Below, piece by piece: positions 16,053-56,681 of a stretch of 56,681 bases of DNA (position 1 is the first letter of the stretch; the number at the start of each line of letters is the position of its first letter). The DNA is from Betaproteobacteria bacterium (lineage in GTDB: Bacteria > Pseudomonadota > Gammaproteobacteria > Burkholderiales > SG8-41): positions 1-56,681 of the forward strand of contig JACPTK010000028.1 of assembly GCA_016192825.1 (NCBI GenBank), given 5' to 3'. The position numbers and the translations under genes were made by a program. The notes under the pieces are model-generated. The model was not told the origin of the DNA, did not search any database, and saw only the letters and a program-made list of their open reading frames with translations.

Positions 16053-16149
16053 AGCCAGTAATACACGCAGTTCGACTCTTACCCCTTATCACGCCATTCA
16101 AGCCCTATCCCTCATCCCTCATCCCTCATCCCTCATCCCTAAGTTCGGC
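16053..16149. repeat. heptamer array TCATCCC
   Basis: Between the thioredoxin-like gene and the convergent GST; about five copies of TCATCCC with period 7 at 16103-16140. No other content. Confidence 0.85.
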
Positions 16150-16752
16150 TTACTCGCGCATGGCGCGCGCCCGCTTCGCCGCCGGGCGCTCCCAGCAGCG
16201 ATGGAGCCAGGCTTTCACGTGCGGCCACTTGCCGAGATCCATCTTCAACCCGCGGTAGAGCGCCCCGGCGACGTTGAGGTCCGCCACCGAGAACGACGGG
16301 CCGGCGAGCCACGCCGATTTCGCGAGCGCGGCCTCCAGCGCACCCAGCGCCGGCTCGACCTCCTTCCACGCCGCTTCGGCGGCCTTCGGATCGCGCTCGG
16401 CCTCGGGCAGCTCCTGCGTGTGCCTGACGTAGTTGACGATCGGGCGATCGAGGCGGTCGGTCTCCCAAAGGCACCACTGCCAGGCGAGCGCCTCGTGCCT
16501 CGGGTCCTGCGGATAGAGCGCGCCGTGCTTCTTCGCGAGGTAGAGATTGATCGCCATCGACTCCGACAGGACGAACCCGTCGTCGTCGATCACCGGCACG
16601 CGGTAATTGGGATTGAGCGCGCGGAATTCGGGCGTGCGGGTCTCCGGCGCGCGCGGCAGCCAGTCCTTGTGATCGTAGGTCAGACCCAGTTCTCCCGCCA
16701 TCCACAGTACGCGGAGGGTCCGGGATTTCGCCGAACCGTATATGCGCAGCAT
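16150..16752 (-). CDS. glutathione S-transferase family protein
   Basis: GST of 200 residues. The N-terminal thioredoxin-like domain starts MLRIYGSAKSRTLRVLWMAG; the serine near position 7 or 10 is the likely thiolate-activating residue. The conserved NPNYRVPVIDDD and LSESMAINLYLAKK segments form the glutathione site. The C-terminal helical domain has LAGPSFSVADLNVAG, the N-capping motif. It is probably a cytosolic conjugating or detoxifying enzyme; the class is uncertain. It is convergent with the thioredoxin-like gene. Confidence 0.88.
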   Translation of the reverse strand: MLRIYGSAKSRTLRVLWMAGELGLTYDHKDWLPRAPETRTPEFRALNPNYRVPVIDDDGFVLSESMAINLYLAKKHGALYPQDPRHEALAWQWCLWETDRLDRPIVNYVRHTQELPEAERDPKAAEAAWKEVEPALGALEAALAKSAWLAGPSFSVADLNVAGALYRGLKMDLGKWPHVKAWLHRCWERPAAKRARAMRE

Positions 16753-17077
16753 ATTTTTTCTCCCCAGTGCGATTGGGATGGCAGTCTACGCGAGATTGGG
16801 CGCGCACGCGAAGCCTCGCCGTAGAAGCTTTACCGCCAAGGGCGCGAAGGAAGAAAAAAGCCTAAACGCAAAGGACGCCAAGACAACGCCACGGGTGGCA
16901 TGCAGGAGACGCGGCGGGTCATTTAGGCGCTGGACAGGGGCCTTTACCGGCGGCTCGTGTTGTGATTTTCCTTGGCGTTCTTCGTGTCCTTCGCGGTGAG
17001 GCTTTTCCTTTCATTGGCGTCCTTCGCGGTGAGGCTTTAGACTTTCGCCTCCCTCTCGTTACTAAAAAGGAAAAAGC
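16753..17077. repeat. intergenic CGCCAAG/GACGC repeat units in inverted orientation
   Basis: Holds units such as ACCGCCAAGGGCGCGAAGG (near 16829) and AAAGGACGCCAAGACAACG (near 16869), and on the other side their inverse forms TTGGCGTTCTTCGTGTCC and GTCCTTCGCGGTGAGGCTTT, the last occurring twice (near 16990 and 17018). Similar units lie at 43153-43230 and inside dnaE2 near 39513. No coding sequence was seen. Confidence 0.65.
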
Positions 17078-17980
17078 ATGGCCGCAGCCAGCAACCTGCC
17101 GGACGTTCTGGAAACGACCGAAGCCGAGCGCCTTGCCACGGGCTTCGTCTTCACCGAAGGCCCGCTCTGGCATCCGGACGGCTACTGGTTCTTCGTCGAC
17201 CTTCGCCGCAACCGGCTCCACCGCATGACGCCGGGCCGGGCGCCGGAGCTCTTCATGGAGACCGCCGGCGGCAACGGCACGACCTTCGACCTGGACGGGC
17301 GGCTCGTCATCTGCGAGGGCGACGCGCGGCGCGTGTCGCGTATCGGCGCGAACGGCAAGCTCGAGACGATCGTGGACAACTTCCAGGGCGGGCGCCTCAA
17401 CCGCCCGAACGACGTCGTGTGCCGCTCCGACGGCAGCCTCTACTTCACCGACCCGGACAAGCGCGTGCCCTACTCGCAGCGCGAGATTCCCGGGCCCGCC
17501 GGCATCGCCAACACCTGGGACGGCGCGCGCGTCTACCGCGTCGCGCCCGGCGGCGGGATCAGCGTGCTCGCGCTCTGCGAGTACCCGAACGGCCTCGCGT
17601 TCTCCCCCGACGAGCGCACGCTGTATGTCGCGAACACGCGCTCCACCCAGTACATTCATGCGCTGGGGCTCGACGCCGCGGGCAACCTCGCGCGGCGGCG
17701 CATCTTCGCCGACCTGAACGAGGGCGCCGAGCCGGGCATCCCCGACGGCCTGAAGGTGGACAGCCAGGGCCGCGTCTACTGCACCGGGCCGGGCGGCATC
17801 TGGGTGTTCACCCCGAACGGAAAGCGCATCGGCATCGTTCAGTTTCCCGAACAGGCGGTGAACTTCGCGTTCGGCGGCGCGGACCTGCGGACGCTGTTCT
17901 GCTGCGCCCATACCTCCGTCTACATCCTGAGGGTCAAGGTGCCGGGGAATCCGCATCCCTGGTACCGGCTGCGCCGGTAA
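17078..17980 (+). CDS. SMP-30/gluconolactonase/LRE family protein
   Basis: Six-bladed beta-propeller of 300 residues. Family landmarks: FTEGPLWHPDG near residue 25 (metal-binding Glu), GRLNRPNDVVCRSDGSLYFT near 105 (Asn and Asp ligands), YPNGLAFSPDERTLYVANT near 170 and IPDGLKVDSQGRVYCTGPGG near 225 (catalytic Asp). Such enzymes hydrolyse sugar lactones or related esters with a divalent metal. The metal residues appear intact, so activity is likely; the substrate is open. No signal peptide. Confidence 0.88.
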   Translation: MAAASNLPDVLETTEAERLATGFVFTEGPLWHPDGYWFFVDLRRNRLHRMTPGRAPELFMETAGGNGTTFDLDGRLVICEGDARRVSRIGANGKLETIVDNFQGGRLNRPNDVVCRSDGSLYFTDPDKRVPYSQREIPGPAGIANTWDGARVYRVAPGGGISVLALCEYPNGLAFSPDERTLYVANTRSTQYIHALGLDAAGNLARRRIFADLNEGAEPGIPDGLKVDSQGRVYCTGPGGIWVFTPNGKRIGIVQFPEQAVNFAFGGADLRTLFCCAHTSVYILRVKVPGNPHPWYRLRR

Positions 17981-18079
17981 GGGATGAGGGCGGAGGGATG
18001 AGGGATGAAAGATGACTCCCCTGTGCGGGAGACTCATCACCCATCACTCATCACCCGTCACCCATCACCGGGTCTCAGG
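17981..18079. repeat. heptamer-type arrays (GGATGAG and CATCACC)
   Basis: Gap between two convergent genes filled with GGATGAG-like units followed by CATCACC/CATCACT-like units, both with period 7 and some substitutions. Confidence 0.75.
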
Positions 18080-19303: not shown

Positions 19304-19404
19304 GGCGCGTGAGTGTGCTTGAGGGCGTGCCGTCTGTCTTTCGATGTCTTACAGTACTATATCGAGAAATGGACACCGCCGACTGACGGCAGCCGACCGG
19401 ATCT

Positions 19405-20217: not shown

Positions 20218-20353
20218 CGATTCATAACCCTGCGAATTCGCTCGTCGCGATTTCGCGGGCGGCGCGGCGCAACTCGAACGAAGGATGGCCAGCGAAGCAC
20301 GGGAAGCCGATGTCAGGTCATCCTTCCGCCTTCAGGCCGCTGGCTACGCGGTC

Positions 20354-21316: not shown

Positions 21317-21361
21317 GGTTTCCTCCTCGAATTGACCCACGTCCACAGGACTCTACCACTT

Positions 21362-21430
21362 GGCGATGGGTGATGGGTCATCCCTCGACCTTCGGGTGAC
21401 TCATCACCCATCACCCATCACTCATCACCG
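21362..21430. repeat. heptamer array GATGGGT / CATCACC
   Basis: Period-7 units GATGGGT-like and CATCACC-like on either side of a short centre, immediately next to the palindrome at 21432-21468. Confidence 0.75.
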
Positions 21431-21431
21431 C

Positions 21432-21468
21432 TAAGGAGTGTGTCGGGGCAAAGCCCGACACACTCCTA
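21432..21468. repeat. TAG-type palindromic repeat, copy 1
   Basis: On the minus strand it reads TAGGAGTGTGTCGGGCTTTG followed by the inverse arm CCCCGACACACTCCTTA. It is identical over 37 bp to the copy at 40342-40378. The first TAG is the stop codon of ettA. It can fold into a long hairpin but has no U-tract. Confidence 0.9.
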
Positions 21469-23268: not shown

Positions 23269-23280
23269 GCGTTCATCAGA

Positions 23281-28687: not shown

Positions 28688-28851
28688 CGCTCCGGCGGAG
28701 GGATGAGGGATGAGGGATGACTCCCGCAGCGTAGAAGCCTTATCCCTTATCCCTTATCCCTTATCCCTTATCCCTTATCCCTTATCCCTTATCCCTTATC
28801 CCTTATCCCCTATCACGTATCACGAATCACGGGTTTGATCAGGAGCACGTC
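28688..28851. repeat. heptamer array TTATCCC, about ten copies
   Basis: After GGATGAGGGATGAGGGATG, the heptamer TTATCCC is repeated without interruption from about 28740 to 28808, then decays into TATCACG units. Confidence 0.95.
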
Positions 28852-29559
28852 ATGCCAGATATCGCATCGAAGGACCGGACGGACGCCGGCTCGGTGATCG
28901 GGCTGAAGCAGCAGCTGGTGGACTGCATCCGCATGCTGGAACAGTCCGACATTATCGACTACAACGGCCATTGCAGCATCCGCCTCGGCGAGGATCGCAT
29001 GCTGATCAACATCGGCTCGTGCCAGCGCAGCCGGCTCACGGTCGAGGACATCTGCGCCATCGACTTCGAAGGCAACGTGATCGAGGGCAAGGGCAGGCCG
29101 CCGCTGGAGTTCCACTTGCATGCCGGCGTCTACCGGGCGCGGCCGGACGTGAAGGCGGTCGTGCACGCGCACCCCAAGTGGTCCACTTTCCTGACCATGG
29201 TCGGCCAGAGCTACCAGCCGGTGTACGCGCAGGGCTCGCTGGTCTGGCCGATGCCGGTACTCGACTCGCCGAACTCGATCAACAACCCGGTGATGGCCAA
29301 GCGCCTGGCGGACACGCTCGGCGACCGGCCGGCGGCGATGATGAAGTCGCACGGCGCGGTGACGGTCGGCAAGGGCATCGTCGAGGCGTTCGTGCTCGCC
29401 AACTACCTCGAGGAGAACGCCTACCGCCAGTACATGGCGCTGCAGATCGGCAAGCCCTACGCGTTCAGCGAGAAGGAAGTGGCGCTGTGCCGCGAGAAGC
29501 TCTGGACCGAGAGCCTGTTCAAGCGCACCTGGGATCATTTCCGCGCCAAGCTGGATTGA
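28852..29559 (+). CDS. class II aldolase/adducin family protein (2)
   Basis: Second family member (235 residues), divergent from the first. Metal ligands are in VVHAHPKWST near 100 and MKSHGAVTVGKG near 165; the catalytic acid is in LEFHLHAGVYR. GATCAGGAGCACGTC precedes the ATG. The heptamer array separates it from the first copy, but direction and family suggest the same pathway. Confidence 0.88.
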   Translation: MPDIASKDRTDAGSVIGLKQQLVDCIRMLEQSDIIDYNGHCSIRLGEDRMLINIGSCQRSRLTVEDICAIDFEGNVIEGKGRPPLEFHLHAGVYRARPDVKAVVHAHPKWSTFLTMVGQSYQPVYAQGSLVWPMPVLDSPNSINNPVMAKRLADTLGDRPAAMMKSHGAVTVGKGIVEAFVLANYLEENAYRQYMALQIGKPYAFSEKEVALCREKLWTESLFKRTWDHFRAKLD

Positions 29560-29569
29560 GCGCGGAAAT

Positions 29570-29643
29570 GATGCAGCGGGATACGGGATACGAGATACGG
29601 GATACGGGATATCTCGCATCACGCATCACGCATCTCGCATCGC
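29570..29643. repeat. heptamer arrays GGATACG and CGCATCA
   Basis: Gap between convergent genes: GGATACG/AGATACG units followed by CGCATCA/CGCATCT units, all with period 7. Confidence 0.85.
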
Positions 29644-30731: not shown

Positions 30732-30968
30732 ATGTTTGCGATCATCTGCAAAGCAGACGGTTTTCCGGTAAGCCGCCATGTTGGGAACGAAACTCCGGAT
30801 CTCGTCGTGACCTGGACCTCACAAGCCGCGGCCAGCGCTTTCCTCGCCGCTAAGGGCATCCAGGCCGACTACCAGGTGGTCGCGCTCACCGACGACTCTC
30901 TCGGCCGCATGGCCCAGGCGCTGGGCTGCCCGGCTGACGCCATCGCGTTCGACGCCTATCCCGGCTAG
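30732..30968 (+). CDS. small hypothetical protein
   Basis: 78 residues starting MFAIICKADGFPVSRHVGNE, behind GGGAGGGCTAAAGC. It has a compact alternating pattern (PDLVVTWTSQAAASAFLAAK) like a small alpha/beta fold and an acidic C-terminus. Family unknown. It overlaps the end of the truncated Bug gene tail-to-tail by 4 bases. Confidence 0.55.
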   Translation: MFAIICKADGFPVSRHVGNETPDLVVTWTSQAAASAFLAAKGIQADYQVVALTDDSLGRMAQALGCPADAIAFDAYPG

Positions 30969-31625
30969 TCGGCCCTCATCCGCCGTTCCTTGATCACGAC
31001 CGCCCACTTCTTCAGCTCGGATTCCAGGGTGGCCGCCGCCTGCTCCGGCGTGCTCCCGACTACATCGAGACCGTCCGCCTCGAACCGCCGGATCGTCTCG
31101 GGAAAGCTCATGGCCTTCCGGAAGTGATCGTTCAGCGTGCCGATGATTTCGCGGGGAGTGCCTTTGGGCGCGGCCAGCACGAACCAGGCGACGAACTCAT
31201 AGCCCGGCAGACCGGATTCGGCGATCGTCGGCACCCCGGGCAGGGCCGCCACCGGCTTCAGGCTGGTCACTCCGAGCGCGCGCAGCCGGCCCGACTTCAC
31301 GAATCCCACCGCGCCGGCAACGCCTGAAAACGCGACGCCCACCTCGCCGCTGATCGCCGCAACCAGCGCGGGACCGCCGCCCTTGAACTGGACGGCGACG
31401 ATGTTCGCCTTGCCGAGATAGTTGAACAGCTCGCCGGCGATGTGCGGGTTCGTGCCGACCCCCGCGGAGGCGTAGTTGAGGTCGCCGGGGCGGGATTTGG
31501 CGAGTTGCAGCAGCTCGCGAACCGACCGCGCCGGCACCGACGGATGCACGCTCAGGAACGAGGGTGTCGTCGACAGGATCGAGATCGGCTCGAAATCCCT
31601 GAGCACGTTGTACGGCACCTTGATA
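30965..31625 (-). pseudogene. 5'-truncated Bug/TctC-family gene
   Basis: The last 220 residues of a Bug protein are intact (KVPYNVLRDFEPISILSTTP through to VVIKERRMRAD), but the signal peptide and about the first 95 residues of the mature part are missing. Upstream of KVPYN the frame runs into GGTGATA/GGGATAA and CTTCATC heptamer-type repeats, which give the false start MKAEGGPALGGSLIPYHLSP. Without a signal peptide it could not be exported or bind ligand, so I call it a pseudogene. The break coincides exactly with the repeat. Confidence 0.8.
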
Positions 31626-31725
31626 GGTGATAGGTGATAAGGGATAAGGCTCCCGCCCAGCGCGGGTCCTCCTTCCGCCTTCATCCTTCATCCTTCATCC
31701 TTAGGACGTGCCCCCTCATCCCTCG
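31626..31725. repeat. heptamer arrays GGTGATA / CTTCATC
   Basis: AGGTGATAGGTGATAAGGG and CCTTCATCCTTCATCCTTCA, each with period 7, occupy the gap between the truncated and the complete Bug gene. Confidence 0.85.
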
Positions 31726-32715: not shown

Positions 32716-32839
32716 GCCGAGGTCTCCTTGCGCACGGTCCGCGTCATTGCCATTCGCCATTCGCCATTCGCCTTCAACATTATGCTCCCGCCTTCCGAAA
32801 TCCTATAATCCGCCTGCCTCCCGATCCCGCGTCCAGATC

Positions 32840-33565
32840 ATGAACCCCCAGATCCGCAGCGCCGGCCCTTCGGCCCTCAAGGTGCTCACGTCCCACAGCT
32901 CGTTTTCGGTGCTCGACGCGCTGGCGCCCGCGTTCGAGCAGGCGGGCGGGCGGCAGTATGCGGTGGAAGCCGACTCGGCCAGGACAATGCTCGCCCGCAT
33001 CAAGGCCGGCGAGACGGCGGATGTCGCCGTGCTCGGCAAGGCGGCGGTGGACGAGATGGCGGAGCTGGGCATCGTCGTCGCCGGCAGCCGCCGCCCCTTT
33101 GCCCGCGCCCGCGTCGGCGTCGCCGTCCGCGCGGGCGCGCCGCGGCCCGACATCTCGTCGGTCGAGGCCTTCAAGCGCTCGATGCTCAATGCCAGCTCGA
33201 TCGCGCATACCGTGCACGGCGCGAGCGGCATGTACGTCCCGGTCCTGATGGAACGCCTCGGCATCGCGGAGCAGACGAAGCCGAAGACCGTCACGCGCCC
33301 GGGCGGCTACATCGCCCGGGTCGTCGCCGCGGGCGAGGCCGAGATCGCCATCCAGCAGATCGTGGAACTGCTGGCGGTGCCCGGCGTCGATCTGGTCGGG
33401 CCGCTGCCGGACGAAATCCAGAAGGTATTCGAGACCATGGCCGGGATCTTCACGGCATCGCGACAGCAAGCGGAGGCGGAAGCGCTATTGAAGTTTCTCC
33501 TCGCCCCGGCCAACGCTGCGGTGTTCAAGGAAAAGGGCCTCGAGTACGTCGGTAAACAGGCATGA
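32840..33565 (+). CDS. ModA-like substrate-binding-domain protein
   Basis: 241 residues with the type II periplasmic-binding fold seen in molybdate-binding ModA. LKVLTSHSSFSVLDALAPAF is the first strand and helix, MLARIKAGETADVAVLGKAA the ligand-loop equivalent, and IQQIVELLAVPGVDLVGPLP the second lobe. It ends LKFLLAPANAAVFKEKGLEY, the family C-terminus. ATG at 32840 gives no signal peptide, unlike true ModA, so it may act in the cytoplasm or may have lost its leader. It has no ABC transporter genes beside it. Confidence 0.78.
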   Translation: MNPQIRSAGPSALKVLTSHSSFSVLDALAPAFEQAGGRQYAVEADSARTMLARIKAGETADVAVLGKAAVDEMAELGIVVAGSRRPFARARVGVAVRAGAPRPDISSVEAFKRSMLNASSIAHTVHGASGMYVPVLMERLGIAEQTKPKTVTRPGGYIARVVAAGEAEIAIQQIVELLAVPGVDLVGPLPDEIQKVFETMAGIFTASRQQAEAEALLKFLLAPANAAVFKEKGLEYVGKQA

Positions 33566-33567
33566 AG

Positions 33568-33606
33568 TTGCCAGTTGTCAGTTGTCAGTTGTCAGTTGTC
33601 AGTGAG
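33568..33606. repeat. heptamer array GTTGTCA
   Basis: GTTGTCA repeated about five times with period 7, starting only 3 bases after the stop of the ModA-like gene. Confidence 0.95.
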
Positions 33607-34840: not shown

Positions 34841-35526
34841 ATCCCGCGATCTGGCGCGGCGACCGGCTGGGCGGCGTCGCGACGCCGAGCGTGCCGACGG
34901 GATTTTCTGAATTGGACGCGGCGCTGCCCGGCGGCGGCTGGCCGGCCGCGGCGCTCACGGAAATCCTGCCGCAGCACGAAGGCATCGGCGAGCTGCGCCT
35001 GCTGGGGCCCGCGCTCGCCGCGCTGTCCGCGCAGCGGCGCACGCTGGTATGGGTCGCGCCCCCTTATCTGCCCTACGCGCCGGCGCTCCAGGCCGCCGGC
35101 ATCGACCTCGCCCGCCTCGTCGTCGTCAGGACGCGCTCGCCGAAGCAGGCGCTGTGGGCGATCGAGCAGGCCCTGCGCTCGAGCGCCTGCGGCGCGGTGC
35201 TCGCCTGGCCGGAGGAAATCCGCTGGCCCGAGCTGCGCCGCCTGCAGCTCGCGACCGAGGGCGGCCGGGCGCTCGCCGTGCTGTTCCGCCCCGCGCGCGC
35301 CGCCGGCGACGCCTCGCCCGCCGCGCTGCGCCTCGGCCTCGACACCCACGCGGGCGGGCTCGCGGCGCGCATCCTGAAGCGCCGCGGCGCCATGCTCGAC
35401 AAGCCGCTCCTGCTGCCGCTGCAGCCAGTCGTGAGCAGGAGCCACTCCGCCAACCATGCTGTGGATCGCCCTTCACTTTCCGCTCCTGCCCCTCGAATCG
35501 TTCCTGCCGGCATCATCCCGCTCTGA
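34807..35526 (+). CDS. imuA: translesion synthesis accessory protein ImuA (SulA/RecA-like)
   Basis: About 239 residues. ImuA is a RecA-like domain without a full ATP site that works with ImuB and DnaE2 in damage-induced mutagenesis. It begins HPAIWRGDRLGG and has VPTGFSELDAALPGGGWPAA, the RecA-like start, and LLGPALAALSAQRRTLVWVA. No ATG is available; GTG at 34807 lies inside an AATCCTGT-type repeat and gives a normal N-terminus, while TTG at 34771 lies in the MFLRRVP repeat. The last 71 bases overlap imuB, so the C-terminal 23 residues are probably not conserved. Confidence 0.85.
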   Translation: MKSCKSCLIFNHPAIWRGDRLGGVATPSVPTGFSELDAALPGGGWPAAALTEILPQHEGIGELRLLGPALAALSAQRRTLVWVAPPYLPYAPALQAAGIDLARLVVVRTRSPKQALWAIEQALRSSACGAVLAWPEEIRWPELRRLQLATEGGRALAVLFRPARAAGDASPAALRLGLDTHAGGLAARILKRRGAMLDKPLLLPLQPVVSRSHSANHAVDRPSLSAPAPRIVPAGIIPL

Positions 35527-36883
35527 ATCGTGGGCCGTCGCCGACGGCCCCGGCGTCATGATGTGCAACCCGCGAGCCCGCGCTCAGGGAGTCCGCCCGG
35601 GAATGAGTCTCGCCGCGGCGTGCGCGCTCGCGCCGGACCTCCGCCACCGCCCGCGGGACGCGGCGGCGGAAGACGCGGCGCTCGGGCAGATCGCGGCCTG
35701 GTCGGTGCAGTTCACCCCCGCCGTCTCGCTGCAGCCGCCGCGCGGCCTGCTGCTGGAAATCGAAGGCAGCCTGCGGCTGCTCGGCGGGATCGGGAGCATC
35801 CTGGAAGCGATCAGGCGCGGCGTCGCGGACATGGGCTACACCGTGTCGCTCGCCTGCGCGCCGACGGTCTCGGCGGCGTGGCTCCTCGCGCGCGGCGGAA
35901 CCGAGCGGGTCTTCGCCGGTCAGCGCGCCATCCGGGAGGCGATCTCGCCGCTGCCGGTGCGCGTGCTCGACTGCGAGGCGCAGGCGCTCGACACGCTGGC
36001 GGCAATCGGCGCGCGGACGATCGGCGATCTCCTCGCCCTGCCGCGCGACGGCGTGGCGCGGCGCTTCGGGCAGCGGCTGCTCGATCAACTCGACCGCGCG
36101 CTGGGGGAGCGGCCCGAGGCGCGCGCGTTCTTCACCGCCGCGCCGCGCTTCGACGCGGCGATCGAGCTCGCGGCGGGGACCGCGAGCGCCGAAGCGCTGC
36201 TGTTTCCCGCCCGGCGGCTGCTGACCCAGCTCGCCGGCTACCTCGCGGGGCGCTGCGCCGGAATCCAGGGTTTCAACCTGGTCCTGCGGCACGAGGACGC
36301 GCCGGACACCGTGCTCGAGATCGGGCTCGCCGCGCCGTCGCGCGAGGCCGACCGGTTCGTTCTCCTCGCCCGCGAGCGGCTGGCGGCCACGGCCCTCGCG
36401 GCGCCGGTCACCCGGGTCGGGGTCGAAGCCGGGGAAATCCTCACGCTCGCGGGAGAGCCGGGGAATCTCTTTCCCGACCACGCGGGCGACGCGGGCGACT
36501 GGGCGCGGCTCGTCGAGCGCCTGCGCGCGCGGCTCGGGCCGGACGCCGTGCACGGGCTCGCGCCGCGCGCCGAGCACCGGCCGGAGCGCGCGTGGCGGGC
36601 GACCGCGCCCGGCGCCCGCGCCGAACAGGCCGGGCGCGCGCCGCGTCCGCTGTGGCTGATCGAGCAGCCGCGCCCGCTCGCGGAAGTGAACTCGAAGCCG
36701 CGCTACCGCGACGGCGCCCTCGCCCTCCTCGCGGGTCCCGAGCGCATCGAGTCGGGCTGGTGGGACGGGGCCGACGTGAAGCGCGATTACTTCATCGCGC
36801 AGACGCCCGACCGGGCCACGCTCTGGGTCTATCGCGATCGCAGGAGGCCGGGGGGGTGGTTTTTGCATGGCATTTTTGGTTAA
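35456..36883 (+). CDS. imuB: Y-family polymerase-like protein ImuB
   Basis: 475 residues of the DinB/Y-polymerase superfamily. It starts MLWIALHFPLLPLESFLPAS and has the family segments VRPGMSLAAACALAPDL, LLLEIEGSLRLLGG, LACAPTVSAAWLLARGG and LLALPRDGVARRFGQRLLDQ. ImuB proteins usually lack the catalytic acidic residues and act as the hub that joins ImuA, DnaE2 and the beta clamp; the absence of a DVD-type motif at the N-terminus here agrees. ATG at 35456 overlaps imuA by 71 bases. It ends WVYRDRRRPGGWFLHGIFG. Confidence 0.92.
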   Translation: MLWIALHFPLLPLESFLPASSRSESWAVADGPGVMMCNPRARAQGVRPGMSLAAACALAPDLRHRPRDAAAEDAALGQIAAWSVQFTPAVSLQPPRGLLLEIEGSLRLLGGIGSILEAIRRGVADMGYTVSLACAPTVSAAWLLARGGTERVFAGQRAIREAISPLPVRVLDCEAQALDTLAAIGARTIGDLLALPRDGVARRFGQRLLDQLDRALGERPEARAFFTAAPRFDAAIELAAGTASAEALLFPARRLLTQLAGYLAGRCAGIQGFNLVLRHEDAPDTVLEIGLAAPSREADRFVLLARERLAATALAAPVTRVGVEAGEILTLAGEPGNLFPDHAGDAGDWARLVERLRARLGPDAVHGLAPRAEHRPERAWRATAPGARAEQAGRAPRPLWLIEQPRPLAEVNSKPRYRDGALALLAGPERIESGWWDGADVKRDYFIAQTPDRATLWVYRDRRRPGGWFLHGIFG

Positions 36884-36975: not shown

Positions 36976-39900
36976 ATGGTTTCGTTGCCCGCCTACGCCG
37001 AGCTGCACTGCGTAACCAACTTCACGTTCCTGCGCGGCGCGTCGCATCCCGAGGAGCTGGTCGCGCGCGCGGCGCAACTCGGCTATTGCGCGCTCGCCGT
37101 CACCGACGAGTGCTCGCTCGCCGGCGTGGTGCGCGCGCACGTCGCCGCCAGGGAGCACGGCCTCAAGCTCGTCATCGGCGCCGAGTTCAGGATCGCGGAC
37201 GGCCCGCGCGTCGTGCTGCTCGCGACCGACCGCGCCGCTTACGGCAACCTGTCCCAGCTCATCACGACTGCGCGGCGGCGCAGCGGAAAAGGCAGCTATA
37301 GCGTCCGATGGGACGATATGGATCGAGGAACCCCCGGATGCCTCGCCATCCTCATTCCGCCGGACATTCCGGCCTCGAATCCCCCCTCTCCCTTCCCTCA
37401 TCCCCGCCCTTCTCCCGAGAGGAGAAGGGGGGCTCGAGCCTCCTCTCTCCCCTCGGGAGAGAGGTTGGGAGCGAGGGATGGAGGGGCGGGGGTGAGGGGG
37501 AAATGCGGAGAGGCAAAGGACCCATGGAATGAGGTGGTCGAGGACGCGCGACGGCTCGCGCGCGCTTATGACGGCCGCGCCTGGATCGCCGCCGAGCTGC
37601 TGTGCGGCCCGGACGACCGGGCGCGGCTCGGCGCGCTGAGGGCGCTCGGCGCGGCCGCCGGCCTGCCGCTCGCCGCGGCCGGCGACGTGCACATGCACGT
37701 GCGCTCGCGCCGGGCGCTGCAGGACACGCTGACCGCGATCCGGCTGCGCACCACGGTCGCCGAAGCGCGCGGCGCGCTCTATCCCAACGCCGAGCGCCAC
37801 CTGCGCATGCGCGTGCGGCTCGCGCAGCTCTATCCCCCCGAGCTGCTCGCCGAAACCGTCCGCATCTCGGAGCGCTGCACGTTCTCCCTCGACAGCCTGC
37901 GCTACGAGTACCCGGAGGAGCTTGCGCCGGCGGGTCATACGCCGGCCTCCTATCTGAGGGAGATCACGGAAGCGGGATTGCGCCGGCGCTTTCCCGCCGG
38001 CGTCCCCGGCAACGTGCGCGAGCTGATCGAGCACGAGCTGGCGCTGATCGCCGAGCTGGAGTACGAGCCCTACTTCCTCACCGTGCACGACATCGTGCGG
38101 TTCGCGCACGGCCGCGGCATTCTGTGCCAGGGGCGCGGCTCGGCCGCCAATTCCGCGGTGTGCTACGCGCTCGGCATCACCGAGGTGGACCCGGCGCGCA
38201 TGAACATGCTGTTCGAGCGTTTCATCTCGCGCGAGAGGAACGAGCCTCCCGACATCGACGTCGACTTCGAGCACCAGCGGCGCGAGGAGGTCATCCAGTA
38301 CCTCTACAACAAGTACGGCCGCGACCGCGCCGCGCTCGCCGCCACGGTGATCACCTACCGCACCAGGAGCGCGATCCGCGACGCCGGCAAGGCGCTCGGC
38401 TTCGATTTGCAGCAGGTGGACCGCCTGTCCCGCTCGTTCGCGTGGTGGGACGGCAAGCATTCCGTGAGCCAGCGCCTCGCCGAGGCGGGGTTCTCCGCCG
38501 ACAGCCCGCAGGTCGAGCGCCTGGTCGAGCTGGTCGGCACGCTTGCCGGCTTCCCCCGGCACCTGTCGCAGCACACCGGCGGCTTCGTGTTCGCGCGCGG
38601 GCTCTTGTCGCGCCTCGTGCCGATCGAGAACGCGGCGATGCCGGCGCGGAGCGTCATCCAGTGGGACAAGGACGACCTCGATGCGCTGGGGCTGCTCAAA
38701 GTGGACGTGCTCGCGCTCGGCATGCTCTCCGCGATCCGCCGGGCGCTGGACATGATCGGCGCCTGGCGCGGGACGACGTTCACCATGAGCGACGTGCCGC
38801 CCGAGGACCCGGCGGTGTACGAGATGATCCAGCACGCGGATACGATCGGCGTGTTCCAGATCGAGTCGCGCGCGCAGATGAGCATGCTGCCGCGGCTGAA
38901 GCCCGCCAGCTACTACGACCTCGTGATCGAGGTCGCGATCGTGCGCCCCGGGCCGATCCAGGGCGGCATGGTCCATCCCTACCTGCGCCGGCGCCAGGGC
39001 ATCGAGCCGGTCACCTGCCCGAGCGAAGCGGTCAAGTCGGTGCTCGCGCGCACGCTCGGCGTGCCGATCTTCCAGGAGCAGGTGATGCAGCTCGCGATCG
39101 TCGCCGCCGGCTTCACGCCCGGCGAGTCCGACAAGCTGCGGCGCTCGATGGCGGCGTGGCGCCGCAAGGGCGGGCTCGAGCATTTCGAGCAACGCCTGGT
39201 CTCGGGCATGCTCGCGCGCGGCTACCGGCGCGAGTTCGCCGAGCAGATCTACCGGCAGATCCTCGGCTTCGGCGAGTACGGCTTTCCCGAGGCTCATTCG
39301 GCAAGCTTCGCGCTGCTGGTGTACGTCTCGGCGTGGATCAAGCGTCACGAGCCGGCGGCGTTCCTCGCGGCGCTCCTGAACAGCCAGCCGATGGGCTTCT
39401 ACGCGCCGTCGCAGCTCGTGCAGGACGCGCGGCGGCACGACGTCGCCGTGCTGCCGGTGGACGTCACCGTCAGCGACTGGGACTGCGTCCTCGAGAAAAG
39501 CGCGGAATCGAACCGCCAAGACGCCAAGGAAGACACAAGCCCCGACACAAAGGAACTCGAATCACGACTCACGACTCACGAATCACGCTTCTCGGACCGG
39601 GTCGAATCACCAATCACCAATCACCAATCACGCCTTTTGCCACAAGTGCGGCTCGGCCTCAGGATGATCTCCGGCTTCGCCGAGGCGGCCGCGGCGCGCC
39701 TGATCGCGGCGCGCCGCGAGCGCCCATTCGACTCGGTCGAAGACATGGCCCGGCGCTCGCAACTGAACCGCCGCGACTTGAAGCTCCTCGCCGCCGCGGG
39801 CGCCTTGAAGCCGCTGGCCGCGCACCGCCGCCTGGCGCATTGGGAAGCCGCGGGGATCGAGCGCGCCACGCCCGTTCTCGGCGACTGCCCGATCGACGAG

Positions 39901-40344
39901 CCGCTGCCGCAACTCGCTCCGCCGGGCGAGGCGGACGAGTTGATCGCCGACTACGCGAGCCTCGGCCTCACGCTCGGCCGCCACCCGCTCGCGCTGCTGC
40001 GGCCGCGGCTCGCGCGCATGCGGCTCGCCACCGCAGCCGCACTGCGCGAGCTTCCGCACGGCCGCCCCGCGCGCGCCGCTGGCATCGTCGTCGGCCGCCA
40101 GCGGCCCGACACCGCTTCAGGGGTGATCTTCGTCACGCTGGAGGACGAGACGGGCAGCGTCAACGTGATCGTCTGGCGCGATCTCGCCGAGCGCCAGCGG
40201 CGCGAATTGCTGGGTTCGCGCTTGATGGGGGTTTACGGAACCCTGGAGAGAGAGGGAGAAGTCGTCCATCTCATCGCAAAGCAGCTCGTTAACCACAGTG
40301 AGCTATTGGGAGCACTGGAGACTTCGAGCCGGGATTTCCACTAG
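36976..40344 (+). CDS. dnaE2: error-prone DNA polymerase DnaE2 (ImuC) with two in-frame repeat insertions
   Basis: C-family polymerase of 1122 residues, the replicating subunit of the ImuAB-DnaE2 translesion system. PHP domain at 1-110 (AELHCVTNFTFLRGASHPEE). Catalytic acids in PDIDVDFEHQRREEVIQY (near 417). An OB-fold nucleic-acid domain is near the C-terminus (GVIFVTLEDETGSVNVIVW). Two stretches do not belong to the family: about residues 133-183 (proline/arginine-rich, from a CTCCCGAGAGGAGAAGG-type palindromic repeat) and about 844-890 (ESNRQDAKEDTSPDTKELES and following, from CGCCAAG and AATCACC/CGACTCA repeats). Both keep the frame. The TAG stop belongs to a palindromic repeat. Confidence 0.92.
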   Translation: MVSLPAYAELHCVTNFTFLRGASHPEELVARAAQLGYCALAVTDECSLAGVVRAHVAAREHGLKLVIGAEFRIADGPRVVLLATDRAAYGNLSQLITTARRRSGKGSYSVRWDDMDRGTPGCLAILIPPDIPASNPPSPFPHPRPSPERRRGARASSLPSGERLGARDGGAGVRGKCGEAKDPWNEVVEDARRLARAYDGRAWIAAELLCGPDDRARLGALRALGAAAGLPLAAAGDVHMHVRSRRALQDTLTAIRLRTTVAEARGALYPNAERHLRMRVRLAQLYPPELLAETVRISERCTFSLDSLRYEYPEELAPAGHTPASYLREITEAGLRRRFPAGVPGNVRELIEHELALIAELEYEPYFLTVHDIVRFAHGRGILCQGRGSAANSAVCYALGITEVDPARMNMLFERFISRERNEPPDIDVDFEHQRREEVIQYLYNKYGRDRAALAATVITYRTRSAIRDAGKALGFDLQQVDRLSRSFAWWDGKHSVSQRLAEAGFSADSPQVERLVELVGTLAGFPRHLSQHTGGFVFARGLLSRLVPIENAAMPARSVIQWDKDDLDALGLLKVDVLALGMLSAIRRALDMIGAWRGTTFTMSDVPPEDPAVYEMIQHADTIGVFQIESRAQMSMLPRLKPASYYDLVIEVAIVRPGPIQGGMVHPYLRRRQGIEPVTCPSEAVKSVLARTLGVPIFQEQVMQLAIVAAGFTPGESDKLRRSMAAWRRKGGLEHFEQRLVSGMLARGYRREFAEQIYRQILGFGEYGFPEAHSASFALLVYVSAWIKRHEPAAFLAALLNSQPMGFYAPSQLVQDARRHDVAVLPVDVTVSDWDCVLEKSAESNRQDAKEDTSPDTKELESRLTTHESRFSDRVESPITNHQSRLLPQVRLGLRMISGFAEAAAARLIAARRERPFDSVEDMARRSQLNRRDLKLLAAAGALKPLAAHRRLAHWEAAGIERATPVLGDCPIDEPLPQLAPPGEADELIADYASLGLTLGRHPLALLRPRLARMRLATAAALRELPHGRPARAAGIVVGRQRPDTASGVIFVTLEDETGSVNVIVWRDLAERQRRELLGSRLMGVYGTLEREGEVVHLIAKQLVNHSELLGALETSSRDFH
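37375..37520. repeat. palindromic CTCCCGAGNGGAG repeat inside dnaE2
   Basis: CCTTCTCCCGAGAGGAGAAG at about 37409 and CTCTCCCCTCGGGAGAGAGG at about 37461 are hairpins of the same type as CTCTCCCGAGGGGAGAAGGG near 41073, which is intergenic. Here the repeat is read as protein. Confidence 0.85.
39505..39645. repeat. heptamer and CGCCAAG repeats inside dnaE2
   Basis: AACCGCCAAGACGCCAAGGA near 39511, then CACGACTCACGACTCACG (period 7) near 39564 and AATCACCAATCACCAATCAC (period 7) near 39604. All are types otherwise found between genes in this window. Confidence 0.9.
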
Positions 40345-43097: not shown

Positions 43098-43121
43098 GCC
43101 ATCTCCTTGTTTCAAAATGCG

Positions 43122-43226
43122 TGATTCGTGATTGGTGATTGGTGAATGGACTTGTTTCTTCGCGCCTTTGCGTCTTTGCGGCTAATTTAATTTGATCTTC
43201 CTGGCGGTCTTGGCGGTCTTGGCGGT
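43122..43226. repeat. GTGATTG-type heptamers and GGCGGTCTT nonamers
   Basis: GTGATTCGTGATTGGTGATT (period 7) is followed by TTCGCGCCTTTGCGTCTTTG and GGCGGTCTTGGCGGTCTTGG (period 9). The latter relates to the CGCCAAGAC units elsewhere. Confidence 0.8.
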
Positions 43227-46039: not shown

Positions 46040-46118
46040 GGTTTCTAATTGACTCGTCACCAGTCACCAGTCACCAGTCACCAGTCACGAGCCACGAGCC
46101 ACGAGCCACGAGTCACTC
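46040..46118. repeat. heptamer arrays CAGTCAC and GAGCCAC
   Basis: CAGTCAC repeated about four times and GAGCCAC about three times, period 7, between etfB and etfA inside one operon. Confidence 0.92.
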
Positions 46119-50215: not shown

Positions 50216-51585
<1,370 letters not shown>

Positions 51586-51599
51586 TGCTTGATACGGCG

Positions 51600-51704
51600 T
51601 GACTGGTGACTGGTGACTGGTGACTGGTGACTCGGATCATATACGGCTTCGCCGCCTGCCGTTTAACGTTCCCTGTTCAGCGTTCACCGTTCACTGGTCA
51701 CCGG
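51600..51704. repeat. heptamer arrays GTGACTG and GTTCACC
   Basis: GTGACTG is repeated about five times (51601-51635), and GTTCACCGTTCACTGGTCAC-type units follow near 51680, all with period 7. Confidence 0.93.
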
Positions 51705-52778
51705 TCACTGTGCGCGCTCGCGCACCGGGACGCGCGGGGCGAGCGCGCAAAGCAACTGGTAGCTCACCGTCCCCGCCGCCTCGGCGACGCGTTCCGCGGG
51801 CACGCCCTCGCCCCACAGCACGACACGCGAGCCGGGGCGCGCTTCCGCAACGTCCGTCAGGTCCACGCACAGCAAGTCCATGGAGACGCGCCCGACGGTG
51901 CCCGTCATCCGGTCCGCCACCCGGACCGGCGTTCCGTTCGGGGCGTGGCGCGGATAACCATCGGCATAGCCGCAGGCGACGACGCCGATCCGCATGGGCC
52001 GTTCCGCCCGGAACATCCCGCCATAGCCCACCGTATCTCCGGGCCGGAGATCCTGCACCGCGATGAGGCGGCTCTCGAGCGTCATGGCGGGCTTCAATCC
52101 CGAAGCCTCGCCGGTCTCCCCGGGGAACGGCGAACAGCCGTAGAGCATGATGCCGGGCCGCACCCAGCCCGCATGGGTCTCGGGGTGCCGCAGGATGGCG
52201 GCGGAGTTGGCGAGACTGAGCGGCATCGCGCCCCACCCCGGCAGCTGCCGCAGGCGTTCCATCTGCCAGGCGACCCCGCGCTCGCCGTCCGCGTCCGCGA
52301 AGTGCGTCATGAGCGTGATGGCGCCGACGCCCGGGTTGCGCCGCAACCGCTCGAGCACGCCGGCGTAATCCCCCGGCGCCAGTCCCAGCCGGTTCATGCC
52401 GGTGTTCACCTTGAGCAGCACGTCGAGCTTCGCGCTCGCCGGCAGCGCCTCGAGCGCGGCGACCTGGTCCAGGCAGTGGACCACGGGCGCGAGCCGGTGC
52501 TCCACCAGCACCGCCAGCTCGCCCGGCTCGAAGAATCCCTCGAGCAGCACGATGCGGCTCCGGACACCCGCCTCCCGCAATCGCACCGCCTCTTCCAGCT
52601 CGAGCAGCGCGTAGCCGTCCGCCGCCGACAGCGCCGCGGCCGCCCGCAGCAGTCCATGACCGTAGGCATTCGCCTTGATCACGGCCATCACCTCCGAGCG
52701 CGGCGCGTGCCGGCGCACGACCGCGAGGTTGTGCTTCAGCGCCGCGGAATCGATGCTGGCGAAGGTGGGGCGGGACAT
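51705..52778 (-). CDS. alr: alanine racemase
   Basis: 357-residue PLP enzyme that makes D-alanine for peptidoglycan. The Schiff-base lysine is Lys35 in VMAVIKANAYGHGL; the second-domain tyrosine is in DTVGYGGMFRAER; GRVSMDLLCVDLTDV is the family signature. It starts MSRPTFASIDSAALKHNLAV. radA and lplT neighbours are usual for betaproteobacterial alr. Confidence 0.95.
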   Translation of the reverse strand: MSRPTFASIDSAALKHNLAVVRRHAPRSEVMAVIKANAYGHGLLRAAAALSAADGYALLELEEAVRLREAGVRSRIVLLEGFFEPGELAVLVEHRLAPVVHCLDQVAALEALPASAKLDVLLKVNTGMNRLGLAPGDYAGVLERLRRNPGVGAITLMTHFADADGERGVAWQMERLRQLPGWGAMPLSLANSAAILRHPETHAGWVRPGIMLYGCSPFPGETGEASGLKPAMTLESRLIAVQDLRPGDTVGYGGMFRAERPMRIGVVACGYADGYPRHAPNGTPVRVADRMTGTVGRVSMDLLCVDLTDVAEARPGSRVVLWGEGVPAERVAEAAGTVSYQLLCALAPRVPVRERAQ

Positions 52779-52784
52779 CGCTGA

Positions 52785-53011
52785 ACTGCGTGATTCGTGA
52801 ATCGTGATTGGTGAACGGTGATTGGAGCCTGCGTTTCCTGCCGCCCTGACTCGAGCAGCTACCTCGCCCCCCTCGCCGGTGGCCGCAACCCGGTTTGAAA
52901 CCGCGAATCAATACCAGAATAGACAGGATCAACCGGATCGACAGGAACTGCGTCGGTTCCTGATTTTGTTGATCCTGTGAATCCTGTCCATTTCTCGTTC
53001 CTGCAACGGGT
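52785..53011. repeat. GTGATTG heptamers and AATCCTGT units
   Basis: GTGATTCGTGAATCGTGATT (period 7) near 52789 and TTGATCCTGTGAATCCTGTC near 52969, the latter like the sequence before imuA. No gene. Confidence 0.75.
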
Positions 53012-53920: not shown

Positions 53921-54264
53921 GCTTCGGTGATGAGTGACGAGTGAAGGGTGACGCGCGCCGCGTGGCGGACCCGCGCGCGCCGTTATCTTGCTCCTCGCTC
54001 CTCACCCCGCTTTCTGCGACCAAAAAGGGTTACTATTCAACCACATTTCGCGTCATCTGTGGTATAAAACGCCAGCCGCGATACCAAGGATGAGGAATGA
54101 AGGATGAGGGATGAGGAAAAAACCGCAGGCCCAGCGTTAGCCGGGGTTCGGTCTTCATCCCTCCGCCCTCATCCCTCCGCCCTCATCCCTCCGCAATGAT
54201 GTCCCGCCGGCGCCCGCACTCTCCGGGCCGCGTCAGGAACGGTTAGCTGGCAACGAGGCGGCGC
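53921..54264. repeat. divergent intergenic with heptamer arrays
   Basis: TGATGAGTGACGAGTGAAGG (period 7) near 53930, GGATGAGGAATGAAGGATGA near 54089 and CCCTCATCCCTCCGCCCTCA near 54178. TATAAA at about 54063 could be a -10 toward lplT, but no -35 is convincing. Confidence 0.65.
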
Positions 54265-55560: not shown

Positions 55561-55700
55561 AACACGGGAGCGCGGGAAATCGGGAGATCGGAAGAGCGAA
55601 ATACCGGGGTTTCCCTCTCCCGCTCTACCGCCCTCGCGCCCTTACGGATTTTGTCCCTCTCCCGCCCTCACGCTCTCACGCCCTCCCGTACTTTGGGCCG
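55561..55700. repeat. CGGGAGA / CCCTCAC-type repeats
   Basis: AATCGGGAGATCGGAAGAGC and, further on, CTCTCCCGCCCTCACGCTCT with CACGCCCTCCCG fill the convergent gap; imperfect periods of 7 to 8. Confidence 0.65.
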
Positions 55701-56213
55701 TCAGGCCGCCTGGAACTTCAGGCGCTTAACCTTCTCCATGTTCACGCCCTCGATGCGGATCAGCCGCGTGGGACCCGCGCGCGACGGCGAATGGAGGTCG
55801 CCTTCGTTGTAGACGTGCGCGATGCCGGGCGTGAGCTTGTAGGTCCGGAGCTTCTTCACCTTGCCCGCCTTGTCCTCGGTGGCGGACTCCAGCAGCTGGT
55901 AATCGCTCATCTCGGTCTCGCCGCGCGCCTGGCCGTAGATCGCCCATGAGGGCCCGTGATCGTGCGGCGGGGAAACCTTCGCGCCCTGGTAGTGATGCGC
56001 CAGGATGCAGAAGCGCAGCTCGGGATCCTCGTAGAGAATCTTGCGCTCGGGCGTCTTGTCGTCGAGGTAGCGGGTCACGAACGCTTTGTCCTTGAGAGTG
56101 GATTCCAGCAGCGCGCGCACCTTCTCGCGCCCCGCGGGCCCCGGCTCGGCCTTCAACAGGTCATGGCATTTCGCGGCAAACTGTTCCAGCGTGGTTGCGG
56201 TGGCAGTGGTCAT
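55701..56213 (-). CDS. cupin protein, cysteine-dioxygenase-like
   Basis: 170 residues with a single double-stranded beta-helix. PPHDHGPSWAIYGQARGETE gives two of the metal histidines and the Glu, and IAHVYNEGDLHSPSRAG gives the third. This is the arrangement of cysteine-dioxygenase-like and related predicted metal enzymes. ATG at 56213 (MTTATATTLEQFAAKCHDLL) follows AAAGGAGGCCGAAC. Thiol oxidation is possible; the substrate is unknown. Confidence 0.83.
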   Translation of the reverse strand: MTTATATTLEQFAAKCHDLLKAEPGPAGREKVRALLESTLKDKAFVTRYLDDKTPERKILYEDPELRFCILAHHYQGAKVSPPHDHGPSWAIYGQARGETEMSDYQLLESATEDKAGKVKKLRTYKLTPGIAHVYNEGDLHSPSRAGPTRLIRIEGVNMEKVKRLKFQAA

Positions 56214-56282
56214 GTTCGGCCTCCTTTGTGGGGACGAAAATAGCATTTCCAGCGCAGGGTGGGAAGCCGGACATCATTTCCG

Positions 56283-56515
56283 GGTGATTCGTGACTTGAT
56301 GCAGCGTGACGTGGTACCGCGTGACATGGCACCTCGTGACTTGATGATTCGTGTTCGGCCCAGTCGAACTCAGCAGCGCCCCATTACGCCACGCCTCACC
56401 ACGTCACGCCCCATCATGTCACGCCCCATCATGTCACGCCTCACCATGTCACGCCTCACCATGTCACGCCTCACCATGTCACGCCTCACCATGTCACGCC
56501 CCATCATGTCACGCC
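56283..56515. repeat. 15-bp tandem array CCATCATGTCACGCC
   Basis: After GTGAC-TTGATG-type units near 56290-56350, nine to ten copies of a 15-bp unit (C/T)CA(C/T)CATGTCACGCC run from about 56380 to 56515. Two sequence variants alternate in blocks. It ends at the stop codon of the partial gene to the right. Confidence 0.93.
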
Positions 56516-56681
56516 TTACTTTTCGCGGGGATCGTGGAGATCTTCGTCCGGCGCCCGGTACTGGCCGGAGCGTATCTGCTTGACCAGGTTCGCGAGGGCG
56601 AGCGCCGCGTTGCCCACTTCCGCGAAGACGTCCGGGTCCTTGTCGAGGTCTTCGTGGCTCGTCGCGTACGGCTGGTACCAC
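56516..56681 (-). CDS. C-terminal part of an unknown protein, cut by the window edge
   Basis: The minus strand gives 54 residues, WYQPYATSHEDLDKDPDVFA through VGNAALALANLVKQIRSGQY to DLHDPREK and a TAA at 56516. Acidic and helical; the family is not recognised. The gene starts beyond the right edge. Confidence 0.6.
   Translation of the reverse strand, partial: WYQPYATSHEDLDKDPDVFAEVGNAALALANLVKQIRSGQYRAPDEDLHDPREK

What the first reader, a model, noticed from the sequence alone, without database searches (positions are those of the whole stretch)
16053..56520. Intergenic gaps filled with period-7 tandem arrays, each gap with its own heptamer
Read by eye, short arrays with a unit of exactly 7 bp occur at about 16103 (TCATCCC), 18030 (CATCACC), 21400, 28740 (TTATCCC, about ten copies), 29580 (GGATACG then CGCATCA), 31630-31700 (GGTGATA, CTTCATC), 33570 (GTTGTCA), 46060 (CAGTCAC, GAGCCAC), 51601 (GTGACTG), 52789 and 54089. 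The unit differs from gap to gap but the period does not, and operon gaps such as etfB-etfA are included. Heptanucleotide STRR repeats are known from cyanobacteria; I do not know a described counterpart in betaproteobacteria. A constant period with variable sequence suggests a copying mechanism, such as template slippage of a fixed step, rather than spread of one element.
Basis: partly seen in the sequence, partly recalled or inferred. Interest (0 to 1): 0.8.

Follow-up and report, generated by a model that had tools for sequence, protein, structure and literature searches.

The report
Paired seven-base repeats between bacterial genes
Many gaps between genes in this betaproteobacterium hold seven-base repeat arrays, about half of them facing a matching opposed array, that were inserted into once nearly empty gaps and keep their repeat length while their sequence changes between species; the kind is known from Xanthomonas, but its usual explanation (four-stranded DNA) does not fit here.

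Summary
Period 7 dominates intergenic tandem repeats over 1.07 Mb of this genome (93 of 126 best-period arrays). (1) The arrays are not mainly independent: 60 of 123 share the core GTGA (12.1 expected with shuffled letters), and about half have a reverse-complement partner beside them (95 of 189, shuffled flanks 5), purine-rich arm first in 23 of 26 opposed pairs. Opposed pairs filling 119 and 177 bp here face gaps of 9 and 5 bp in a congener. (2) The period varies: opposed pairs with period 8, 9, 13 or 15 occur, and both arms share it (22 of 26; permuted 10.7; 8 of 8 when neither is 7). At the etfB-etfA slot congeners carry 4x GTGAATC-type, 8x CAGGATT-like or 9x GTGACTG/GTGGCTC units: the period persists while the unit turns over. 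This is the Xanthomonas type of inverted heptamer repeat, four-unit preference included, but only 16 of 192 arrays have a G-quadruplex motif. Best mechanism: slippage within arms plus copying between arms (inferred). How pairs disperse is unknown.

The parts
16103..16143 (-). heptamer array, unit TCATCCC, in the gap 16053-16149
17986..18015 (+). purine arm (GGGATGA) of an opposed pair between convergent genes (SGL-domain gene / MFS gene)
18032..18069 (-). pyrimidine arm (ATCACCC) of the same pair
21397..21429 (-). array, unit CATCACC
28694..28722 (+). purine arm (GGGATGA x3) between two class II aldolase genes; in congener G002 the homologous genes are 36 bp apart, measured between protein matches
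28735..28832 (-). pyrimidine arm (TTATCCC x11, then ATCACGN units)
29576..29643 (.). abutting arms GGGATAC and CGCATCA between an aldolase gene and a shikimate dehydrogenase gene; 12 bp between protein matches in G002
31619..31704 (.). opposed arrays GTGATAG / CTTCATC at the 5' end of an N-terminally short TctC reading frame
32746..32775 (.). array, unit GCCATTC
33565..33605 (.). array, unit GTTGTCA, directly after a solute-binding-protein gene
39556..39633 (-). two heptamer arrays (same orientation) inside the DNA polymerase III alpha-type (error-prone) polymerase frame; most of this stretch lies in an in-frame insert absent from two Paraburkholderia homologues
43117..43150 (+). array (GTGATTG) between the acyl-CoA dehydrogenase gene and the HpcH/HpaI-domain gene; 19 bp between protein matches in G002
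46052..46117 (-). nine-unit single array (sense GTGACTG / GTGGCTC) in the etfB-etfA gap
51597..51635 (+). GTGACTG arm of the opposed pair in the alr-radA gap (9 bp between protein matches in G002); alr by Pfam, radA named by me from its domain make-up
51674..51709 (-). [quoted passage not shown]
52787..52825 (+). array GTGATTC/GTGAATC upstream of alr; 10 bp between protein matches in G002
54086..54118 (+). purine arm GGATGAG
54155..54194 (-). opposed arm TCATCCC/TCCGCCC
55573..55685 (.). opposed period-8 arrays (CGGGAAAT ... CTCACGCC)
56290..56516 (.). opposed period-15 arrays (GCGTGACATGGCACC ... CACGCCTCACCATGT)

Best explanation
The arrays belong to a dispersed family of repeat elements of the Xanthomonas type, about half of them arms of opposed pairs. 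A typical GTGA-family pair is two arms, often of four 7-bp units, in inverted orientation, purine-rich arm first, around an unshared spacer of mostly 29-64 bp. Elements entered gaps that were a few bases long. Afterwards arms change in two ways: slippage inside an arm changes copy number and homogenises the unit, and copying between the two arms (quasi-palindrome template switching during replication) gives both arms the same unit type and period. Because slippage copies whatever period is present, the period is inherited while the unit drifts. Coding DNA is mostly spared, presumably by selection. Shown: pairing, polarity, matched period and unit type, insertion relative to congeners, unit turnover at one slot. 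Inferred: slippage and template switching as the processes. Unknown: how elements disperse and where spacers come from.
For: Opposed neighbouring arrays share their period in 22 of 26 pairs, against a mean of 10.7 and a maximum of 18 in 5000 permutations; 8 of 8 when neither is 7. Reverse-complement partners (score at least 11) lie beside 95 of 189 arrays, against 5 of 189 with shuffled flanks; in the smaller set the own flank beats 10 other gaps in 41 of 121, expected 11. The purine arm comes first in 23 of 26 opposed pairs and in 25 of 25 neighbouring GTGA arms of at least three units. The variable base after GTGA is shared between the arms of one element (0.441 against 0.302 permuted, p = 0.0024, 24 elements). 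Spacers are 29-64 bp in 29 of 42 paired elements. Near-empty sites: etfB-etfA 2-3 bp in five family relatives and alr-radA 8-9 bp in G002, G023 and G049; L038:15598-15776 5 bp in G002. Of 37 slots compared, 24 carry an array in G000 and 6 of those are at most 15 bp in some congener. Unit turnover at one slot: four GTGAATC-type units (G002, G004, G006), eight CAGGATT/CAGGGAT units (G005), nine GTGACTG/GTGGCTC units (G000). Period turnover at one slot: 7 in G000 and G005, degenerate in G001, 13 in both arms in G004 and G008. Template switching is said to homogenise inverted-repeat arms (PMC8604942, start of abstract seen in the listing).
Against: Arms do not match unit by unit: in-register identity of the variable base is 0.393 against 0.433 out of register in the same element, which simple hairpin copying would not predict. 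Neighbouring arrays that are not opposed also tend to share the period (6 of 8, permuted 2.7, maximum 6), so the period match is not special to opposed arms. Four-unit arms have partly conserved borders and a four-unit peak (67 of 175 GTGA arms; 57 have two, 32 three, 12 five), which drift plus slippage does not explain. Spacers of different elements show no similarity apart from the period-15 type, so copies do not look like ordinary transposition. Slots occupied in G000 are not significantly more often occupied in a congener (Fisher p 0.2 to 1). About half of the arrays have no clear partner. No strain-level pair was available to see copy number change.
Confidence: 0.48

Rival explanations
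1. Binding-site arrays: each arm of about four GTGANT units is a recognition site for an unidentified protein (architectural, recombinase-like or regulatory), and selection keeps the core while the base after GTGA stays free.
For: In 76 four-unit arms (44 from G000, 32 from relatives) the base after GTGA is almost random (0.02-0.14 bits); the outer flank is A-rich at three positions (47-67%) and the inner border is S-G-A (G 93%, A 51%); four units is the commonest size. The four-unit array between etfB and etfA is nearly the same in G004 and G006 although third codon positions of etfB are only 64% identical between them.
Against: The GTGA core was the search criterion, so its conservation in the logo is built in. 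Other unit families and periods show the same opposed layout. The same gap in other congeners has a different unit or none.
Confidence: 0.2
2. RNA hairpins: transcribed arms pair and act as terminators or as 3'-end or intercistronic mRNA stabilisers, under selection at the RNA level.
For: Gaps with arrays (68) fold more strongly than gaps without (80 of 282 sampled): mean z -1.6 to -4.1 against -0.3 to -2.0 by gap type and strand. By inspection some opposed arms pair fully only with G-U pairs (28694-28832).
Against: No strand asymmetry: the sense strand is the more stable in 24 of 45 co-directional array gaps, as in controls (26 of 56). Variable positions are not compensated in register. Arrays occur in divergent gaps too (16 of 107, against 93 of 462 co-directional and 23 of 105 convergent). 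Spacers fold no better than control intergenic DNA (32 against 32, p = 0.42).
Confidence: 0.15
3. Fixed-step slippage: a polymerase property favours 7-base steps anywhere, so arrays arise independently in each gap.
For: Period 7 dominates in this genome and in other family members with different units. A preference for 7 in many bacteria has been attributed to the DNA segment held by the polymerase (a 2007 hypothesis as cited in PMC4692102 and PMC4679880).
Against: Shared unit families (60 of 123 against 12.1); 73 of 75 unit classes (190 of 192 arrays) join one single-substitution network (null mean 36.1, maximum 60 of 300), though 755 of 1172 possible classes lie within one step of an own unit, so this test is weak; opposed pairing and insertion of whole pairs; periods 8, 9, 13 and 15; few arrays in coding DNA; absence from most of the order (11 of 300 genomes match a GTGANTS triplet; other heptamers were not searched there).
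Confidence: 0.1
4. G-quadruplex elements, as proposed for Xanthomonas and Nostoc.
For: Same opposed layout and four-unit preference as the GGGNATC repeats (PMC4692102).
Against: Only 16 of 192 period-7 arrays have four G-tracts on either strand, yet the GTGA family, whose unit has no GGG, shows the same four-unit peak.
Confidence: 0.03
5. REP-like elements moved by a Y1 (RAYT) transposase.
For: Intergenic, often palindromic, dispersed; G000 has 8 Y1_Tnp matches.
Against: G005 has no Y1_Tnp match but 124 pattern matches; G104 has 7 Y1_Tnp and 0 pattern matches. No shared hairpin core.
Confidence: 0.04

Closest known systems
GGGNATC heptameric repeats of Xanthomonas (Rehm et al. 2015, PMC4692102)
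   Same: 7-bp units with free positions; over-represented in non-coding DNA; dispersed over the genome; 70 and 75 cases of two sites in convergent orientation close together; preference for four units; length and sequence variation between close relatives
   Different: Here most units have no GGG and lack a quadruplex motif; many unit families and several periods coexist in one genus; near-empty orthologous gaps and unit or period turnover at a slot are seen
Heptanucleotide repeats of cyanobacteria (STRR of Calothrix; GGGGA(T/C)T of Nostoc)
   Same: heptanucleotide, intergenic, dispersed
   Different: only a few paired repeats in Nostoc according to PMC4692102; other units
TAACTGA repeats of Beggiatoaceae (PMC4679880)
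   Same: abundant intergenic heptamer direct repeats, often just upstream of genes
   Different: one fixed heptamer, related heptamers rarely repeated, one inverted set reported
REP / REPIN palindromes with RAYT (features recalled)
   Same: intergenic palindromic repeats in many copies
   Different: shared hairpin core and linked transposase; neither found here
Quasi-palindrome template switching
   Same: homogenises the arms of inverted repeats (PMC8604942, abstract start)
   Different: not known to me as a source of paired tandem arrays (own knowledge)

Membership tests
Xanthomonas-type inverted heptamer repeats | tandem 7-bp units concentrated in intergenic DNA | tested here: met
   30 against 1.6 exact runs per 100 kb; 93 intergenic and 9 coding best-period-7 arrays
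Xanthomonas-type inverted heptamer repeats | arrays close together in convergent orientation | tested here: met
   25 of 25 neighbouring GTGA arms of at least three units; 23 of 26 opposed pairs of any unit; about half of all arrays have a partner
Xanthomonas-type inverted heptamer repeats | preference for four units | tested here: met
   of 175 GTGA arms 57 have two units (near the detection floor), 32 three, 67 four, 12 five, 7 more; other unit families not counted
Xanthomonas-type inverted heptamer repeats | G-tracts able to form a G-quadruplex | tested here: not met
   16 of 192 arrays have the motif on either strand
Xanthomonas-type inverted heptamer repeats | transcribed repeats | not testable with these tools
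   no transcriptome on hand
REP / REPIN | copy number linked to a Y1 transposase | tested here: not met
   G005: 0 Y1_Tnp, 124 pattern matches; G104: 7 and 0; 26 genomes examined
REP / REPIN | conserved hairpin core shared by copies | tested here: not met
   22 regex-found GTGA elements: one spacer pair with E < 0.01, both of the period-15 type
MITE | conserved interior between terminal inverted repeats | tested here: not met
MITE | target-site duplication | not tested
   near-empty sites were printed but not analysed for duplications
Cyanobacterial STRR | heptanucleotide tandem repeats dispersed in intergenic DNA | tested here: met
   the published STRR units themselves were not searched for
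Known structured RNA | match to an Rfam family | tested here: not met
   no match in the whole window at gathering score
   opposed pairs with periods 8, 9, 13 and 15

The most novel reading that the evidence does not exclude
An undescribed sequence-specific process writes paired tetra-heptamer blocks (A-rich flank, CGTGANT then three more units, SGA border; inverted; purine arm first) around newly captured, unrelated spacers into gaps between genes, and then keeps the two arms alike in unit and period while the unit drifts. Opposed repeat pairs, with period 7 in Xanthomonas and 7, 8, 9, 13 or 15 here, would then be one class of self-correcting palindromic elements across bacteria, and not G-quadruplex signals or ordinary slippage.
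Probability: 0.2. Interest if true: 0.85.

Novelty: new variant of a known kind. Interest (0 to 1): 0.57.

Why it matters
Heptamer repeats are over-represented among long simple repeats in many bacterial genomes, and their role is unexplained (PMC4692102, PMC4679880). This genus separates explanations: the same opposed, four-unit layout exists without G-tracts, so G-quadruplexes are not the general cause; and the match of unit and period between opposed arms points to copying between arms. Congeners with near-empty, occupied and re-written versions of the same gap make the birth and turnover of such arrays directly testable.

Tried and rejected
RNA-level selection: sense and antisense folding do not differ. 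Nested hairpin in the spacer: it looked so by eye in several elements, but 32 spacers fold no better than 32 control stretches. Unit-by-unit compensation between arms: not found. RAYT transposase: no association. Loss of the hairpin nuclease SbcC: no SbcC_Walker_B match in the 7 same-genus genomes searched (G000 included), but also none in several array-poor genomes, and one array-rich genome (G035, 8% contamination) has it; by my grouping on the GTGANTS pattern alone, 1 of 10 array-rich and 4 of 16 other genomes reach the family cut-off; inconclusive. Slot persistence across congeners: not significant. Rfam: nothing. Named relatives around the 28852-29559 aldolase gene (the 80 kept of 126 hits, 1.16 Mb, all scanned) hold only 3 period-7 arrays, so the feature is lineage-limited; the GTGANTS triplet occurs in 24 of 60 relatives and 11 of 300 order members, with a second hot spot in one genus of another family. 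Single-substitution network of units: supportive but weak. Literature: over the held open-access library; those listings showed no paper on such pairs in Betaproteobacteria, and most subscription papers are not held.
Full report
What is there. The window (contig 27 of a 5.1-Mb draft genome) has period-7 arrays at all the listed places. In 804 kb of the same genome, exact period-7 runs occur at 30 per 100 kb of intergenic DNA and 1.6 per 100 kb of coding DNA; periods other than 7 and its multiples are rarer, period 15 being the next. With 1.07 Mb and the best period kept at each place, intergenic arrays number 93 for period 7, 8 for 8, 6 for 9, 1 for 12, 4 for 14, 10 for 15 and 4 for 18; coding arrays with period 7 number 9. 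Genes were called by a simple codon-usage script, so these labels are approximate.

Anatomy. About half of the arrays face a matching array: 95 of 189 have a reverse-complement partner (score at least 11) within 130 bp, against 5 of 189 with shuffled flanks. The layout is a purine-rich arm, a spacer and a pyrimidine-rich arm: 23 of 26 opposed pairs of any unit, and 25 of 25 neighbouring GTGA arms of at least three units. In 76 four-unit arms from G000 and relatives the unit is mostly (C/G/A)GTGANT; the base after GTGA is nearly free, the outer flank is rich in A at three positions, and the arm is followed by S-G-A. The search required GTGA, so the core in that logo is built in; the borders and the free base are not. 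Of 175 GTGA arms in G000, 57 have two units, 32 three, 67 four, 12 five and 7 more. Among 42 paired GTGA elements 8 are 4+4 and 8 are 2+2, the latter mostly of the period-15 type; spacers are 29-64 bp in 29 of 42. Spacers of 22 regex-found elements gave one similar pair, of the period-15 type; of 13 further matches in the sample, 12 come from that type and 1 covers arm sequence. Spacers are not unusually structured.

Kinship of units. 60 of 123 unit consensuses contain GTGA, against a mean of 12.1 and a maximum of 24 when the letters of each unit are shuffled. The 75 unit classes of 192 arrays almost all join one single-substitution network (73 classes; null mean 36.1, maximum 60 of 300). This is weak evidence, because 755 of 1172 possible classes lie within one step of an own unit; the mean distance between classes is only slightly below the null (2.95 against 3.07). 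So 'each gap its own heptamer' is better read as a cloud of heptamers with one dominant family.

Insertion. Gap lengths in relatives are measured between protein matches, so they include the stop codon and are good to a few codons. In congener G002, which shares 260 of 304 sampled 50-mers of locus L154 with the named MAG RIFCSPLOWO2_02_FULL_67_26 (locus L051), the alr-radA gap is 9 bp against 119 bp here; it is 8 bp in G023 and G049. In several other relatives the same gap holds several hundred unrelated bases. The gap at L038:15598-15776 is 5 bp in G002, 22 bp with a short single array in G001, and 177 bp with a 13-unit arm here. The etfB-etfA gap, which holds a single array here, is 2-3 bp in five family relatives and 67-112 bp in seven members of the genus. 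Over 29 orthologous gaps shared with G002, the 17 with an array only in G000 have median lengths of 161 bp in G000 and 36 bp in G002; with the more distant congeners no such length difference is seen. I read the near-empty gaps as ancestral because outgroups share them at alr-radA and etfB-etfA; for the third site there is no outgroup.

Turnover. At the etfB-etfA slot G002, G004 and G006 have four GTGAATC-type units, G005 has eight CAGGATT/CAGGGAT units, G000 nine GTGACTG/GTGGCTC units, and G003 and G007 no heptamer array. At L048:17458-17599, G000 and G005 have period-7 pairs, G001 a degenerate one, and G004 and G008 period-13 pairs in both arms. At L038:12805-12967, G000 and G008 have period-15 pairs, G001 a GGGAATG pair like that of Xanthomonas, and G002 5 bp. 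Array presence at a slot is not significantly correlated between G000 and any congener, so I do not claim that slots are fixed.

Matched arms. Arrays detected by self-similarity alone give 34 neighbouring pairs in G000 and relatives, 28 with the same period (permuted mean 13.3, maximum 21 of 5000). Of these, 26 are opposed: 22 share the period (permuted mean 10.7, maximum 18), and 8 of 8 when neither is 7; three of the four mismatches are 7 against 14. The 8 pairs that are not opposed also tend to match (6 of 8, permuted 2.7). Arms find their reverse complement in their own flank more often than in other gaps. Within GTGA elements the free base is more alike between the two arms than between elements (0.441 against 0.302, p = 0.0024), but not unit by unit (0.393 in register, 0.433 out of register). 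This fits repeated exchange between arms combined with slippage, and does not fit selection for base pairing at each position.

Inside a gene. The DNA polymerase III alpha-type frame 36976-40344 (Pfam; its plasmid homologues are annotated as error-prone DNA polymerase) carries a 41-column in-frame insert with heptamers, and a second insert near residue 140, both absent from two Paraburkholderia homologues. The scan printed eight heptamer arrays that lie inside called reading frames, this one among them.

Mechanism. The best-supported account is dispersal by an unknown route, followed by slippage within arms and copying between arms. The period persists because slippage copies the period that is there. 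G-quadruplexes are unlikely as the general cause (16 of 192 arrays have the motif). There is no sign of RNA-strand selection or of a RAYT link. What remains unexplained is the four-unit preference with its borders, the fixed polarity, the dominance of period 7 and the origin of the spacers; these leave room for a sequence-specific process.

Relation to what is known. Of PMC4692102 I read the abstract, introduction, passages and discussion: Xanthomonas has 186 and 183 such arrays, 70 and 75 cases of convergent neighbours, and a preference for four units, which the authors tie to G-quadruplexes while finding no function. Of PMC4679880 I saw abstract lines and passages, which cite four Burkholderia among the ten genomes richest in 5-11-nt repeats and the polymerase-slippage idea. 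The present arrays are the same kind with other units; the new points are the lack of G-tracts, the matched periods, and the near-empty and re-written orthologous gaps.

Noticed in passing
36976-40344: The DNA polymerase III alpha-type (error-prone) frame, beside a Y-family polymerase gene (35456-36883, Pfam IMS), carries two in-frame inserts, one of which contains heptamer arrays.
   Followed up: partly
30965-31684: This TctC frame matches the family only from profile position 60 and begins inside opposed heptamer arrays, so the gene looks N-terminally truncated beside an array.
   Followed up: no
52905-53000: By eye the 52779-53011 gap also holds an opposed ACAGGATC-like repeat of about period 9, so two kinds of element sit in one gap; ACAGGATTA-type period-9 arrays recur elsewhere in the genome (L011, L013, L023).
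   Followed up: partly
56290-56516: Period-15 elements (GTGACATGGTGCGGC type) form a second dispersed family, also at L038, L019 and in congener G008.
   Followed up: partly
L132-L134, L139, L144, L145 (between alr and radA): In six relatives the alr-radA gap holds 523-696 bp that look mutually similar by eye and may be a small gene; it was not identified.
   Followed up: no
L188, L194, L213, L219, L226, L233, L247: Some viral contigs carry the GTGANTS triplet on both strands close together, which suggests the same opposed pairs; whether these contigs are truly viral was not checked.
   Followed up: no
G177, G272, G301: The reversed (control) pattern matches 32, 36 and 16 times in these three genomes of one genus (g23, family f15), which suggests another heptamer family there.
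   Followed up: no
L020, L025: Two short contigs of the own genome read as N throughout and had to be discounted.
   Followed up: yes
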